Source: Allostella sp. ATCC 35155 (GTDB taxonomy: Bacteria > Pseudomonadota > Alphaproteobacteria > ATCC43930 > Allostellaceae). From it: a DNA stretch of 64,000 nucleotides. Both the position numbers and the translations under genes were made by a program. The notes under the pieces are model-generated. The model saw only the letters and a program-made list of their open reading frames with translations. It was not told where the DNA came from and did no database searches. Below are positions 221 through 3,727 of the stretch, in pieces; within the stretch, counting starts at the first letter, position 1, and every line of letters begins with the position of its first letter. The stretch covers positions 673,001 to 737,000 of the forward strand of contig AP019701.1 in NCBI GenBank assembly GCA_006738865.1, read 5' to 3'.

Positions 221-246
221 AAAATAGCCCCGGCGGTTCCGGGGCT
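221..246 (-). terminator. Intrinsic terminator of the carrier-protein operon
   Basis: A perfect 8-bp stem (AGCCCCGG at 226-233 with CCGGGGCT at 239-246, 5-nt loop) is followed on the minus strand by ATTTT. It lies about 130 nt past the stop codon of the last gene of the minus-strand operon (375-3517) and points the right way to end that transcript. Confidence 0.7.
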
Positions 247-374: not shown

Positions 375-1439
375 TCAATGCCCCGGCTCGGCGACCAGCC
401 AGCCGAGGTGGCGGTCGAAGCTTCCGTCGGGCACGAGGTAGGGGATGACGCCGTGCCGCTCCAGGCCCGCAATCGGCACCAGTTCGACGCCCTCGATCCC
501 GGCCATGCGTTCGGCCTCCTGCCGGTCGAGGGCGTTGGCCTCGCCGTAGACGAGGCGGAGCCGGGGCCGCGCGGCGGCCTCCCGGTAGAGTCTCGCGAGA
601 TCGAGTCGCTCCGGGTCGACCGGTTCGACGACCGTTCCCTTGAGGCGCTCGCGGCGCAGGAGTTCCGGCAGGCTCCGGTCGAGGATGGTCGGGCCGGCCA
701 AGCAGAGCACGCGGGCCGCGCCGAGGTCGAGGGCATAGCGCATCGCGCCGAACGAGCCGGAGGAGCCGCCGATGCACACGATCCGCTCGCAGCCGAGGTC
801 GGCCACGAGGCGGCGCAGCGCCGCCAGCGTCGCGCCGTACCCGTCCCCCAGCGAGCGGATGCCGCCGAGGAAATGCATGCCGTGGACGTCGCGCAGGTAG
901 ATGACGGTCGCGCCCAGGCGGCGCAGCCAGGCATGGATCAGGCGCAACGGTCCGTTCAGCCGCTGGGCCCCGCCGGTGAAGACGAGAAGGGCGGTGCGGG
1001 CCCCAGGTCGACGGGTCACCTGGACGTCGGCGGCCGGATCGTCGAGCAGGTCCGTCGCCGCATCGTCCGGAACGGCCGCCGGGGCGTGGCGCGCCAGGAT
1101 GTGCAGTTCCTCGATCGCTTCCAGCACCGCCGGCTGGTCCGCGGTCGCCGCGACGAAGGCGCGGAGCAGCTCCACCCCGCCCATCGTCGCGATCGCGTTG
1201 ATCAGGACGCTGCGCTCCTTGGCGCCGTGGGCGGGCGGCAGAACGGACGGATCGCGTACGAAGCGGACGCCGTCGAGCATCAGGCGCCAGCCGATGCCGC
1301 CCTGGGCGGCCGCGAGCGCGCGTTCCACGAGGTCGTGCTCGCCCTGATGCCAGCGCCGGGTCACCTCGGAGGCGAAGCGGAGGGGACCGAGCGCGGCCGG
1401 GCAGAGCGGCTGGTCTGCGTCCTGGGGGGCAGGGGTCAT
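375..1439 (-). CDS. Alpha/beta-hydrolase-fold protein, last gene of the carrier-protein operon
   Basis: 354 residues. The C-terminal two thirds looks like an alpha/beta hydrolase: a beta-strand (TALLVFTGG, about 149-157), a nucleophile elbow GGSSG (224-228, predicted Ser226), an acid-loop candidate in YGEANALD (Asp305) and a late His in LERHG (His329). The first 120 residues are a helical region I cannot assign. There is no signal peptide, so it is cytosolic. Its start overlaps the stop of the carrier-protein gene by 4 nt (ATGA), implying translational coupling. Next to a carrier protein, thioesterase or acyltransferase release of a tethered product is the natural guess. It could equally be a hydrolase acting on a free small molecule. 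Confidence 0.75.
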   Translation of the reverse strand: MTPAPQDADQPLCPAALGPLRFASEVTRRWHQGEHDLVERALAAAQGGIGWRLMLDGVRFVRDPSVLPPAHGAKERSVLINAIATMGGVELLRAFVAATADQPAVLEAIEELHILARHAPAAVPDDAATDLLDDPAADVQVTRRPGARTALLVFTGGAQRLNGPLRLIHAWLRRLGATVIYLRDVHGMHFLGGIRSLGDGYGATLAALRRLVADLGCERIVCIGGSSGSFGAMRYALDLGAARVLCLAGPTILDRSLPELLRRERLKGTVVEPVDPERLDLARLYREAAARPRLRLVYGEANALDRQEAERMAGIEGVELVPIAGLERHGVIPYLVPDGSFDRHLGWLVAEPGH

Positions 1440-1684
1440 GGCGCTGCGAGCGGGTCCGCCTCGCGCGCGTAGGCGATGATGGCGGCGATCGAACTGCAGG
1501 TCGCGATGTCCTCGTCCGCGACGCGCAGCCCGTAGAGTTCCTCGACCTGGATCAGCACCTGGGCATGGTCGAGCGAATCCATGCCGGCGTCGCCGAAATC
1601 CGTCTCGACGCCGATGGTGGCGGCGTCCAGACGGTCGATGGCGCCGGCGATCGCGGCACGCACCTGTTCCTCGGTCAGAGTCAT
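1436..1684 (-). CDS. Stand-alone acyl/peptidyl carrier protein
   Basis: 82 residues with the classic carrier-protein signature DAGMDSLDHAQ; Ser37 is the expected 4'-phosphopantetheine attachment site. Acidic, four-helix-sized, no other domain. It is not next to fabD/fabG/fabF, so it is unlikely to be the housekeeping AcpP. It overlaps both neighbours by 4 nt (ATGA at 1681-1684 and at 1436-1439), placing it at the centre of a four-gene operon with an ATP-grasp ligase and an alpha/beta hydrolase. Inference: it carries an acyl or aminoacyl group for that pathway. No phosphopantetheinyl transferase is encoded nearby, so one would have to act from elsewhere in the genome. Confidence 0.88.
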   Translation of the reverse strand: MTLTEEQVRAAIAGAIDRLDAATIGVETDFGDAGMDSLDHAQVLIQVEELYGLRVADEDIATCSSIAAIIAYAREADPLAAP

Positions 1685-2322
1685 TCCTGCGTCCGGCTCC
1701 CGGAGGGGTTTTCCGATTCTAGCGGCCGTCGTGGCGTCGTTCCATCACCGGGACTGCGCCGCGGCTGCCCGCGCGCCATCAGGACATGGCCGAGCCGATC
1801 GCCGTCGAGCGCGACGTCGAAGCGGCAGAAGCGCCAGCCGAGGCGCGGTGCGGCCGTGATCGCGACCGCTCCGTCGGGCGGGGGCCGGCGGGCGCAGGCG
1901 ATCTCGGCGATCGACCAGTAGTCGTCGGGGTGGCTTCGTTCGAGCAGCGCCAGTCCCATGGCAACGGCCCGGTGCAGCGGCCCTGCCGGGCCGCCGGTCG
2001 GCTGGCTCGCACGACCGTCCCCCAGCGTGGCCCCGCGCAGGAGTTCGGCGTCGTCCCAGGGGCGCCGCGCGGTGATGGGCCGGTCCGGGCGGTGCCGCAG
2101 CCAGACTCGGTGCGCGCATCCGGCGCGGCGATAGCGGAACTCGCCGCAGCCGGGCTCGCCCGCCGCCGGTGCGGCGTCGAGCGTTTCGATCGCGGCGCCG
2201 CCCGCCGTGCGCAGGACAAGGACGATGTCGGACTCGGCGCCGGTGCCGGCGAGCAGCGCCTCCAGGATGTCGACCCCATGGACATAGGTCCGCTCGCCGG
2301 TCAGCGGCGGTTCGACGAGCAT
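1681..2322 (-). CDS. Uncharacterised 213-residue protein of the carrier-protein operon
   Basis: I do not recognise this family. Recognisable stretches are GERTYVHGVDILEALL near the N-terminus, RVWLRHRPDRPITARRPW in the middle and LERSHPDDYWSIAEIACARR, then GWRFCRFDVALDGDRLGHVL near the C-terminus. There is no signal peptide, membrane segment or P-loop. I start it at the ATG at 2322, 13 nt after the stop of the ATP-grasp gene; an in-frame start at 2379 would overlap that gene by 44 nt and adds an unlikely Cys/Ser-rich leader. No strong Shine-Dalgarno precedes 2322. The stop overlaps the carrier-protein start (ATGA). Position between ligase and carrier suggests it works in the same pathway, perhaps as an acyl-transfer or tailoring protein; that is a guess from context only. 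Confidence 0.7.
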   Translation of the reverse strand: MLVEPPLTGERTYVHGVDILEALLAGTGAESDIVLVLRTAGGAAIETLDAAPAAGEPGCGEFRYRRAGCAHRVWLRHRPDRPITARRPWDDAELLRGATLGDGRASQPTGGPAGPLHRAVAMGLALLERSHPDDYWSIAEIACARRPPPDGAVAITAAPRLGWRFCRFDVALDGDRLGHVLMARGQPRRSPGDGTTPRRPLESENPSGSRTQE

Positions 2323-2335
2323 CGCGGAAATTCGA

Positions 2336-3517
2336 TCATGACATGACGATATGGGGCACGAAGCGGCTCGTTGCATCATGAATCACCGGGCCGTCGGCCT
2401 CCATGATGCCAAGGCCGGCCGGCTCGCCGCCGACGATCCACCCGCCGACCGACGCGTGGCTTCGCCCGTCGCGGCGCAGGAACACGGGCAGGCGGTGGAG
2501 GGCCTGCACCACAAGACCCTCGCGCCCGTAGGTGCCACCCGTGCGGGTCTCGCCGCCGGGGAGGGCCGGGTCGCGAAGCAGGATGTTGTGGCCCTTGTTC
2601 GAGAAGAGCGGCTTCACGACCATGCGCTCGGCCGGGGCGCCGGCCTCGCCGGCGAACCAGCAGGGTAGGAGGTTCGGGTGCCCTGGAAAGAGCCGCCAGA
2701 GCCAGACGAGCAGACCCTTGGAGGAGAGAACGAGCTTCCAGGCGGGCTCGACGAGCCGCGCCTGATCCGGCCGCAGGAGCCAGGGTCCGAACGGTTCGCG
2801 CAGCAGCAGCTCCCAGCGATAGGCCTTGACCAGCCATTCGATGCGCCGGTCCCCGGCATCGGTCAGGCGCCCGGTCCCGTCGATGCCGATCGCCTCGATA
2901 TCGACGAGGGCGGTCCGAAGGCCCGCCTGTGCCGCGCAGTCCGCGAGGTAGCGCGTCCACAGGCGGTCTTCCAGGTTCCTCCGCGAGGCGGCGAAATGGA
3001 CGGGCGTCGCCGCGGGCAGTTGCGCGAAGGCGCCGACGAGAGCGAGGTGGAGGCGGTTGAACTGGTCGGCGTCGGCCGGGACCGTCGCTCCGGCAATCCG
3101 ATCCTCGAGCCACAGCCACTGGAACATCGCTGCCTCGAACAGCGCCCCCGGCATGTCGCCGTTGCACTCGTGCAGCTTGGGCGGTGCGCCGCCGTCGCAG
3201 GCGAGATCGAAGCGGGTGCAGATCGCGGGATCGCGGCGACGCCAGCTTGCTCGAACGAGATTCCAGGCCGGCTCCGGAATGCCGAGCGAGGCGAGCACCC
3301 GATCGTCGCCGCAGGCATGCTCGACGACGGCCAGCGACAGGCGCCAGAGCTCCGCGATCGCCGGTCGGAGCACCGTCTCCACGGTCGACCGCTCGATGGT
3401 GTAGCAGGCGTCGTCGGTCCAGTAGGGGCCGTCGGGATAGGTGTGGTACGCGAAGCCGAGCCGGTCGGCCGTGCGCTGCCAGCCGGCGCGGACGGGGAGT
3501 TCGATGCGGCGCATCAT
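2336..3517 (-). CDS. Glutathionylspermidine-synthase-like ATP-grasp ligase
   Basis: 393 residues, the usual length for the GSP_synth pre-ATP-grasp/ATP-grasp family. Family hallmarks are clear: RFDLACDGGAPPKLHECNGD (about 102-121), then ALFEAAMFQWLWLED, an FPGHPNLLPC motif, a KPLFSNKGHNILL strand and VGGWIVGGEPAGLGI near the end. These enzymes use ATP to activate a carboxylate and join it to an amine (glutathione plus spermidine in E. coli Gsp); no amidase domain is present here. First gene of a four-gene operon with a carrier protein, which suggests it loads or extends a carrier-bound substrate, as the ATP-grasp BtrJ does with carrier BtrI in butirosin biosynthesis. Start chosen at MMRRIELP (3517), matching family N-termini; an in-frame GTG at 3577 would read through a terminator hairpin. 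Confidence 0.8.
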   Translation of the reverse strand: MMRRIELPVRAGWQRTADRLGFAYHTYPDGPYWTDDACYTIERSTVETVLRPAIAELWRLSLAVVEHACGDDRVLASLGIPEPAWNLVRASWRRRDPAICTRFDLACDGGAPPKLHECNGDMPGALFEAAMFQWLWLEDRIAGATVPADADQFNRLHLALVGAFAQLPAATPVHFAASRRNLEDRLWTRYLADCAAQAGLRTALVDIEAIGIDGTGRLTDAGDRRIEWLVKAYRWELLLREPFGPWLLRPDQARLVEPAWKLVLSSKGLLVWLWRLFPGHPNLLPCWFAGEAGAPAERMVVKPLFSNKGHNILLRDPALPGGETRTGGTYGREGLVVQALHRLPVFLRRDGRSHASVGGWIVGGEPAGLGIMEADGPVIHDATSRFVPHIVMS

Positions 3518-3553
3518 GGCGCCGGTCGCCGTTGGCGGCAGGTCCGGGTCGGC

Positions 3554-3584
3554 AAAAAAAGGCCCCGGTGTTGCCACCGGGGCC
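3554..3584 (-). terminator. Strong intrinsic terminator in front of the ATP-grasp operon
   Basis: Perfect 10-bp stem (GGCCCCGGTG at 3561-3570 with CACCGGGGCC at 3575-3584, loop TTGC) followed on the minus strand by seven T residues (3554-3560). It ends either the small RNA described here or transcription coming from lysR/trxB. It overlaps the upstream in-frame extension of the ATP-grasp reading frame, which is why that extension was rejected. Confidence 0.85.
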
Positions 3585-3727
3585 AGTTGAACAGGGAGGC
3601 TTCACGTCTGGGAGACGTAGGATCCCGAAGGACCCCATTTCGGGCGGGGAGCCCGAAATTCCGGACCGGCAGGCCTTCCCTGGTGGCCGGCCGGTCGAAT
3701 TCCTCGGTGCTGCATTGCAGCGCCTGC
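3554..3727 (-). ncRNA. Candidate structured small RNA or attenuator leader
   Basis: On the minus strand this 170-nt stretch folds into consecutive hairpins: GACCGGC/GCCGGTC (3664-3696), a perfect 9-bp stem with a C-rich loop (3637-3659), a UUCG-capped stem (3620-3635), a perfect 6-bp stem with a CCC loop (3604-3618), then a 10-bp terminator. A TATTTAAT box at 3733-3740 could be the -10 element, putting the 5' end near 3727. C-rich loops recall anti-Shine-Dalgarno small RNAs of alphaproteobacteria. Only 37 nt separate the U-tract from the ATP-grasp start codon, so the element could instead be a cis-acting attenuator. It occupies most of the 357-nt gap between the LysR gene and the ATP-grasp gene; nothing else was seen there. 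Confidence 0.55.

What the first reader, a model, noticed from the sequence alone, without database searches (positions are those of the whole stretch)
375..3517. Four-gene ATP-grasp / unknown / carrier protein / hydrolase operon
A glutathionylspermidine-synthase-like ATP-grasp ligase, an unrecognised 213-residue protein, a stand-alone carrier protein (Ser37 in GMDSLDHAQ) and an alpha/beta hydrolase (Ser226, Asp305, His329) are encoded in this order. The last three genes overlap by ATGA, and the unit ends in an intrinsic terminator at 221-246. ATP-grasp enzymes that load amino acids onto a carrier protein are known (BtrJ with BtrI in butirosin biosynthesis), but I know of no GSP_synth-family enzyme paired with a carrier. 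Inference: activation of a substrate by the ATP-grasp enzyme, tethering on the carrier, modification by the unknown protein and release by the hydrolase. It would be a minimal non-NRPS route to an amide or peptide-like product.
Basis: partly seen in the sequence, partly recalled or inferred. Interest (0 to 1): 0.75.

Follow-up and report, generated by a model that had tools for sequence, protein, structure and literature searches.

The report
Carrier-protein operon with unusual activating enzyme
A rare bacterial four-gene unit appears to activate a small acid, hold it on a dedicated carrier protein, alter it and release it; its activating enzyme is an altered relative of enzymes that join peptides to polyamines, and sister units use other activating enzymes or none.

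Summary
The four genes are real, correctly placed and under purifying selection. The ATP-grasp protein belongs to the GSP_synth family; its closest solved relatives are E. coli YgiC and YjfC. The "unknown" protein has a predicted hotdog-like C-terminal half, the fold of acyl-thioester dehydratases and thioesterases. The carrier is not the fatty-acid AcpP. The hydrolase keeps Ser226/Asp305/His329.

The recurrent core is carrier plus hydrolase: 13 of 25 examined loci of this hydrolase family have an adjacent carrier. The neighbouring acid-activating enzyme varies: GSP_synth (this window and one congener), other ATP-grasps (three loci), AMP-forming ligases (six loci), none seen (two loci).

But the two carrier-linked copies form their own clade and lack motifs that the carrier-free copies aligned here keep (DTPT, KLYPWE, the lid Arg), while the putative ATP/Mg residues remain.

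Best reading: an accessory carrier pathway with an exchangeable activating enzyme. ATP-grasp loading of the carrier is the leading model but is unproven; substrate and product are unknown. Verdict: new variant of a known kind.

The parts
2336..3517 (-). ATP-grasp ligase, GSP_synth family, carrier-linked subclade (P0001, 393 aa)
   Evidence: PF03738 357.8 bits over model positions 1-371 of 371; YgiC 7uk8 E 3.8e-90; altered pocket and lid motifs; own clade with the L030 copy
1681..2322 (-). Unknown protein, predicted hotdog-fold acyl-thioester enzyme, possibly a double hotdog (P0002, 213 aa)
   Evidence: No Pfam match even at E 10; two low-confidence AF2 models agree on a helix plus four strands in the C-terminal half; Foldseek hits mostly hotdog enzymes; within about 1 kb of a carrier in all 5 clear members
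1436..1684 (-). Stand-alone carrier protein, Ser37 in GMDSLDHAQ (P0003, 82 aa)
   Evidence: PF00550; not AcpP; Asp36-Ser37-Leu38 invariant in 4 rows
375..1439 (-). Alpha/beta hydrolase, carrier-associated family, Ser226/Asp305/His329 (P0004, 354 aa)
   Evidence: Triad invariant in 9 rows; 13 of 25 examined loci of the family have an adjacent carrier
221..246 (-). Weak intrinsic-terminator-like hairpin after the hydrolase gene
   Evidence: 8-bp stem, -17 kcal/mol, z -2.1, tail ATTTT; not listed by the scan

Best explanation
An accessory four-gene carrier-protein pathway. The holo-carrier holds a small carboxylic acid as a thioester. The GSP_synth-type ATP-grasp enzyme activates that acid as an acyl phosphate and, in this subclade, most likely passes it to the carrier; it stands where sister loci have an AMP-forming ligase or an unrelated ATP-grasp. 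The hotdog protein changes the carrier-bound acyl group (dehydration, decarboxylation or editing). The Ser-His-Asp hydrolase, the carrier's constant partner, releases it or transfers it to an acceptor. Shown: the genes, their families, the recurrent carrier-hydrolase pairing, the variable activating enzyme, the changed motifs of the ATP-grasp. Inferred: every reaction step, substrate and product.
For: Carrier next to hydrolase at 13 of 25 examined loci of the family, in three supported hydrolase clades plus two single rows. Near 11 of these 13 an acid-activating enzyme is seen: GSP_synth at 2; other ATP-grasp at 3 (Azospirillum x2 directly upstream of the carrier; G498 a convergent YheC/D type); AMP-binding at 6. 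The two carrier-linked ATP-grasps form one clade (SH-aLRT 100, stem 0.76) and alone among 37 aligned rows lack DTPT and KLYPWE, and the lid Arg, while R102/D104/E117/N119/K302 stay. Hotdog-like fold. In G106 the hotdog homologue lies between LpxD-like and FabH-like genes, then a carrier. One PPTase (PF01648) match in the genome. dN below dS for all four genes.
Against: G001 and G319 keep hotdog-carrier-hydrolase without an ATP-grasp beside it, and no GSP_synth match was listed for G319, so the ATP-grasp is not obligatory. YgiC/YjfC are cited as peptide-spermidine ligases (reference title seen). The loss of a lid Arg kept across the family could also mean reduced or altered catalysis. Both hotdog models have mean pLDDT 54 and no Foldseek hit at or below 1e-3; the N-terminal half is unresolved. 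The carrier-linked ATP-grasp is known from only two genomes of one genus.
Confidence: 0.45

Rival explanations
1. The ATP-grasp is an ordinary acid-amine ligase like YgiC/YjfC and never touches the carrier. The carrier is loaded elsewhere (fatty-acid synthesis, a CoA or ACP ligase, or direct acyl-phosphopantetheinyl transfer); the hotdog and hydrolase make and free an acid, which the ATP-grasp then joins to an amine.
For: Closest solved relatives are YgiC (E 3.8e-90) and YjfC (E 4.7e-85). Core units without the ATP-grasp exist (G001, G319). 0 of the 29 other best class homologues have a carrier in the flanks read. FabH-like and LpxD-like neighbours in G106 suggest fatty-acid-type supply of the acyl group.
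Against: Other activating enzymes stand in the same neighbourhood in sister carrier-hydrolase loci, and the acid-pocket and lid motifs changed only in the two carrier-linked copies of those aligned.
Confidence: 0.33
2. The hydrolase is an acyltransferase rather than a thioesterase: the unit decorates a surface glycan, lipid or amine with the carrier-bound acyl group, in the manner of the Dlt system (activating enzyme, carrier, transfer).
For: Some carrier-free relatives of the hydrolase sit near glycosyltransferase- and sulfotransferase-like genes (L033 with sub-threshold Pfam matches; L036 and L038 by eye; L098 annotated); the G106 hotdog homologue sits in a NeuB/LpxD/PIG-L/ABC cluster; the TSH100 unit sits beside an annotated glycosyltransferase and a weakly sulfotransferase-like gene.
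Against: No glycan genes recognised by eye within the mapped flanks of the window unit and G319; in G001 only a polysaccharide-deacetylase-like gene (by eye); no membrane acyltransferase in the unit.
Confidence: 0.15
3. The ATP-grasp is a chance neighbour or a decaying duplicate; only hotdog, carrier and hydrolase form the system.
For: Absent from the G001 and G319 units; loss of family-conserved residues.
Against: The same four-gene order occurs at a different place in G002, ATP-grasp dN 0.32 versus dS 0.84, and putative ATP/Mg residues are kept.
Confidence: 0.06

Closest known systems
E. coli YgiC / YjfC peptide-spermidine ligases (Pederick et al. 2023, seen only as reference 48 and one sentence of PMC12568646; structures 7uk8, 7uk6)
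   Same: Same PF03738 family over full length; ATP/Mg motif residues kept
   Different: Nothing about a carrier in what I saw; DTPT, KLYPWE and the lid Arg replaced in the window enzyme
BtrJ-BtrI of butirosin biosynthesis (ATP-grasp loading of a carrier; the loading reaction is recalled, passages of PMC4431377 and PMC11405602 name the proteins only)
   Same: ATP-grasp enzyme plus stand-alone carrier
   Different: Another ATP-grasp clade (PMC4431377 passage puts BtrJ with carbamoyl-phosphate synthases and DUF3182); no hotdog; release by other enzymes (recalled)
Dlt D-alanylation system (recalled)
   Same: Activating enzyme, small carrier, downstream transfer or hydrolase-like protein
   Different: AMP-forming DltA and membrane acyltransferase DltB; neither among the four genes here
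Hotdog dehydratases/thioesterases: PKS DH domains, FabZ, ApeI/P, MadB
   Same: Predicted fold of the C-terminal half; genomic link to a carrier
   Different: No sequence match; the HxxxG(x4)P dehydratase motif (recalled) is not seen at the corresponding place in the five members
AMP-ligase / carrier / hydrolase loci found here (G000 5.27 Mb, G001 5.78 Mb, G304, G208)
   Same: Same hydrolase family beside a carrier and an acid-activating enzyme
   Different: AMP-forming ligase instead of ATP-grasp; TauD-like oxygenase instead of hotdog in the two congeners

Membership tests
GSP_synth (PF03738) ATP-grasp family | Full-length profile match above the curated cut-off | tested here: met
   357.8 bits versus cut-off 29.3, positions 1-371 of 371
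GSP_synth (PF03738) ATP-grasp family | Putative ATP/Mg and catalytic residues (R102, D104, E117, N119, K302) | tested here: met
   Aligned with YgiC, YjfC, GspS and trypanothione synthetase and in the family alignment. Catalytic roles recalled
YgiC/YjfC-type peptide-polyamine ligase (function) | Conserved motifs DTPT, KLYPWE and lid Arg of the carrier-free copies | tested here: not met
   Window NGDMPGA, KAYRWE, SNKG; DTPT and KLYPWE in 35 of 35 carrier-free rows, lid Arg in 34 of 34 with that stretch. That these motifs define the function is inference
YgiC/YjfC-type peptide-polyamine ligase (function) | Amide formation between peptide carboxylate and spermidine | not testable with these tools
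   Needs enzyme assay
Acyl/peptidyl carrier protein | PP-binding profile with DSL serine | tested here: met
   44.9 bits versus 20.8; Asp36-Ser37-Leu38 invariant in 4 rows
Fatty-acid AcpP | Gene between fabG and fabF; TIGR00517 above cut-off | tested here: not met
   28.8 bits versus 70.45; the AcpP-like gene is elsewhere
Alpha/beta hydrolase (Ser-Asp-His) | Nucleophile elbow GxSxG and conserved Asp and His | tested here: met
   G224, S226, G228, D305, H329 invariant in 9 rows
Alpha/beta hydrolase (Ser-Asp-His) | Pfam profile over cut-off | tested here: not met
   Abhydrolase_1 14.1 bits versus 25.8: a divergent family; fold not modelled
Hotdog-fold enzyme | Long helix packed by an antiparallel sheet | tested here: inconclusive
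   Two AF2 models agree for residues about 90-185 (block pLDDT about 56-89); by title about 45 of 50 and 41 of 50 listed hits are hotdog proteins, probability up to 1.00, but best E 1.1e-3 and 1.3e-2 and mean pLDDT 54
PKS DH / FabZ dehydratase | Catalytic His motif HxxxG(x4)P (recalled) | tested here: not met
   At the place matched by eye the five members read RTYVHG, RSYIHG, RRYAHG, RTYLHG, RTYLRG; N-terminal half poorly modelled, so the match of place is unsure
NRPS | AMP-forming adenylation and condensation domains | tested here: not met
   None among the four proteins
BtrJ-like carrier-loading ATP-grasp (function) | ATP-dependent acylation of a carrier | not testable with these tools
   Needs intact-protein mass spectrometry

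The most novel reading that the evidence does not exclude
A subclade of the glutathionylspermidine-synthase family has been recruited from making amides to loading a carrier protein, plugging into a recurrent carrier-hydrolase module whose loading enzyme is exchangeable between unrelated activating-enzyme families (GSP_synth, other ATP-grasps, AMP-forming ligases), with a new hotdog family as the tailoring enzyme.
Probability: 0.38. Interest if true: 0.7.

Novelty: new variant of a known kind. Interest (0 to 1): 0.52.

Why it matters
If right, it adds an ATP-grasp family to the enzymes that can charge carrier proteins and shows a minimal, portable carrier-hydrolase module in which the activating enzyme is swapped while the release enzyme stays. 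It names two unannotated families (hotdog and hydrolase) that mark such units, and gives a simple test: does a GSP_synth enzyme with altered DTPT and lid motifs acylate a carrier?

Tried and rejected
The unknown protein has no sequence relative in Pfam, NCBIfam, PDB sequences (0 at E 10), plasmids or viral contigs. It is rare: 4 of 385 class genomes (one of them, G045, is a 20-bit hit with three stops that I discard); of 398 phylum genomes 8 matched at E 0.01, but only the window's own genome strongly, and the 7 others (E 0.0015-0.0072) are dropped. One named contig in genome contigs, the same contig as in G002 (same length and match place).

A defence-system reading: no PADLOC match for the four proteins. 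AcpP identity of the carrier: rejected. Chance neighbourhood of carrier and hydrolase: rejected, given 13 of 25 examined loci against 3-8 PP-binding matches per genome in the ten genomes counted.

Hydrolase tally, rows dropped and weak points: 17 weak rows (E above 1e-8); 3 of 6 plasmid records not fetched. The 12 loci counted as without a carrier: L033, L034, L036, L037, L038, L040, L098, L126, L137, L138, L139, L140. Of these, L040 (G025) has a cut-off, divergent PP-binding piece at its contig end (E 3e-4), so it may be a fourteenth; L126 (G064) ends 0.9 kb upstream of the hydrolase frame.

Riboswitch upstream of the operon: Rfam gave only matches below gathering scores. Literature: no report of a GSP_synth enzyme with a carrier in the listings of searches of the open library (passages read only in the papers); the YgiC/YjfC paper is not in those listings. 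My first gene caller was mis-trained and its maps were replaced. My notebook says 36 carrier-free ATP-grasps; the printed rows count 35.
Full report
What is there. Protein 1 matches PF03738 (GSP_synth) over its whole length with 357.8 bits; protein 3 matches PF00550; protein 4 has only a sub-threshold alpha/beta-hydrolase match; protein 2 has none. The two ATGA overlaps are real; genes 1 and 2 are 13 bases apart. The hairpin at 221-246 folds at -17 kcal/mol but has a short T tail. All four genes have counterparts in G002 (identity 52-60%) with dN below dS.

The ATP-grasp. Its best solved relatives are YgiC (7uk8, E 3.8e-90) and YjfC (7uk6, E 4.7e-85), then GspS and trypanothione synthetase. 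YgiC and YjfC are cited as peptide-spermidine ligases (Pederick et al. 2023; I saw the reference title and the phrase 'peptidylpolyamine synthetases' in passages of PMC12568646). The family is common: 68 of 385 class genomes match P0001. Among the 30 best-matching loci, the window's own included, only the window has a carrier, hotdog or hydrolase in the 1.5 kb flanks (carriers rechecked with a broader profile at E 1; two loci are shortened by contig ends). 12 of the other 29 were read with wider flanks where the contig allowed, again none. Two neighbours checked by Pfam are DUF1190 (L090) and DUF350 (L092) proteins. The remaining matching genomes were not examined for neighbours.

A distinct subclade. 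The window and G002 copies form one clade (SH-aLRT 100, stem length 0.76), with G383 as sister (98); G383 has no carrier nearby and keeps the usual motifs. Of the 37 rows aligned, all 35 carrier-free copies read DTPT where the window reads DMPG and G002 DAPG; all 35 read KLYPWE where the two read KAYRWE; and the Arg of [SG]R[EQ]G, in 34 of 34 that cover it and also in GspS and trypanothione synthetase, is Asn or Val in the two. R102, D104, E117, N119 and K302 stay. By recall, the first motif corresponds to GspS residues that contact glutathione; I did not test that. The pattern suggests that the acid or acceptor site changed in the carrier-linked pair.

The 'unknown' protein. It is very rare: clear members in G000, G001, G002, G319 (same class, another order) and G106 (23% identity), and all five have a carrier within about 1 kb. 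Two AlphaFold2 jobs, limited to two sequences, gave poor overall models (mean pLDDT 54) that agree on residues about 90-185: a long helix followed by four strands. The N-terminal half was modelled differently in the two and is unresolved. A dehydratase His motif is not seen. In G106 the gene lies in a NeuB, LpxD-like, FabH-like, carrier, PIG-L, ABC cluster, which fits an enzyme acting on acyl-carrier.

The carrier-hydrolase pair is the constant part. At 25 examined loci of this hydrolase family (E 1e-8 or better, or fetched plasmid records) a carrier is adjacent at 13: window, G002 C388, G001 0.71 Mb, G319, G000 5.27 Mb, G001 5.78 Mb, G002 C175 (fused to an AMP-binding protein), Azospirillum lipoferum 4B, Azospirillum sp. 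TSH100, G304, G208, G287, G498. A fourteenth, G025, has a cut-off divergent piece at its contig end. Of the 12 counted as without, 4 (L033, L036, L038, L098) lie near glycosyltransferase- or sulfotransferase-like genes. In the hydrolase tree carrier-linked rows fall into three supported clades, each with its own kind of activating enzyme: hotdog type (GSP_synth in 2 of 4, none in 2), AMP-ligase type (4 of 4), and ATP-grasp type (Azospirillum x2 with an ATP-grasp directly upstream, its Pfam matches below cut-off, plus a divergent YheC/D one; G498 with a convergent YheC/D one). G002 C175 and G287, placed singly on long branches, have AMP-binding/carrier proteins, G287 in a polyketide-synthase-type cluster. 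In all, 11 of 13 have an acid-activating enzyme nearby.

Where the evidence cuts the other way. G001 has the hotdog-carrier-hydrolase unit at the same chromosomal site without the ATP-grasp (its one GSP_synth gene lies far off), and G319 has it without any GSP_synth match listed (searches used the same settings and both examined 385 genomes, so I take G319 to be in both). A carrier loader elsewhere must be assumed there. The ATP-grasp could therefore act beside the carrier, as a plain ligase, rather than on it.

Mobility. In G003 the same site (trxB, LysR gene, non-coding RNA, then the Rnk/GreA-like gene) has no operon; in G002 the operon is at another place, beside an SBP_bac_5 solute-binding protein gene. 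The unit is accessory within the genus.

Judgement. The operon and its module are real, and I found no description of this combination in the searches I ran (62, 63, 67, 71, 93, 103, 104; listings, with passages of a few papers). Each component kind is known; the combination and the subclade appear new. I put 0.45 on the activation-carrier-tailoring-release model with the ATP-grasp as probable loader, 0.33 on the plain-ligase rival. Substrate and product are unknown.

Noticed in passing
window 3545-3700, - strand: Conserved non-coding RNA-like stretch with a strong terminator (3584-3561), 90-99% identical over the matched part in three congeners, in the trxB-LysR(vtlR/lsrB)-sRNA position where AbcR1/2 lie in Agrobacterium (PMC7486931, passages); Rfam matches stay below gathering scores.
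   Followed up: partly
L032 8065-11751 (G000 5.27 Mb) and L035 8503-12208 (G001): Second carrier unit in the same genome: AMP-binding ligase divergent from TauD-like oxygenase, carrier and a hydrolase of the same family.
   Followed up: partly
L097 2947-6615 and L099 2915-6603 (Azospirillum plasmids): ATP-grasp, acyl carrier and hydrolase in a row with a divergent YheC/D ATP-grasp; in L099 beside an annotated glycosyltransferase gene.
   Followed up: partly
L047 3-6979 (G106): NeuB, LpxD-like, hotdog homologue, FabH-like, carrier, weakly ATP-grasp-like pieces in different frames, PIG-L and ABC transporter: a possible sugar N-acylation cluster.
   Followed up: partly
L001 607-2968 (G000 1.58 Mb): Another small carrier beside a cytochrome P450 gene and a TauD-like gene: the genome has several miniature carrier systems.
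   Followed up: no
L030 5299-5996 (G002): Phd/YefM-type antitoxin and PIN-domain genes directly downstream of the G002 operon.
   Followed up: no
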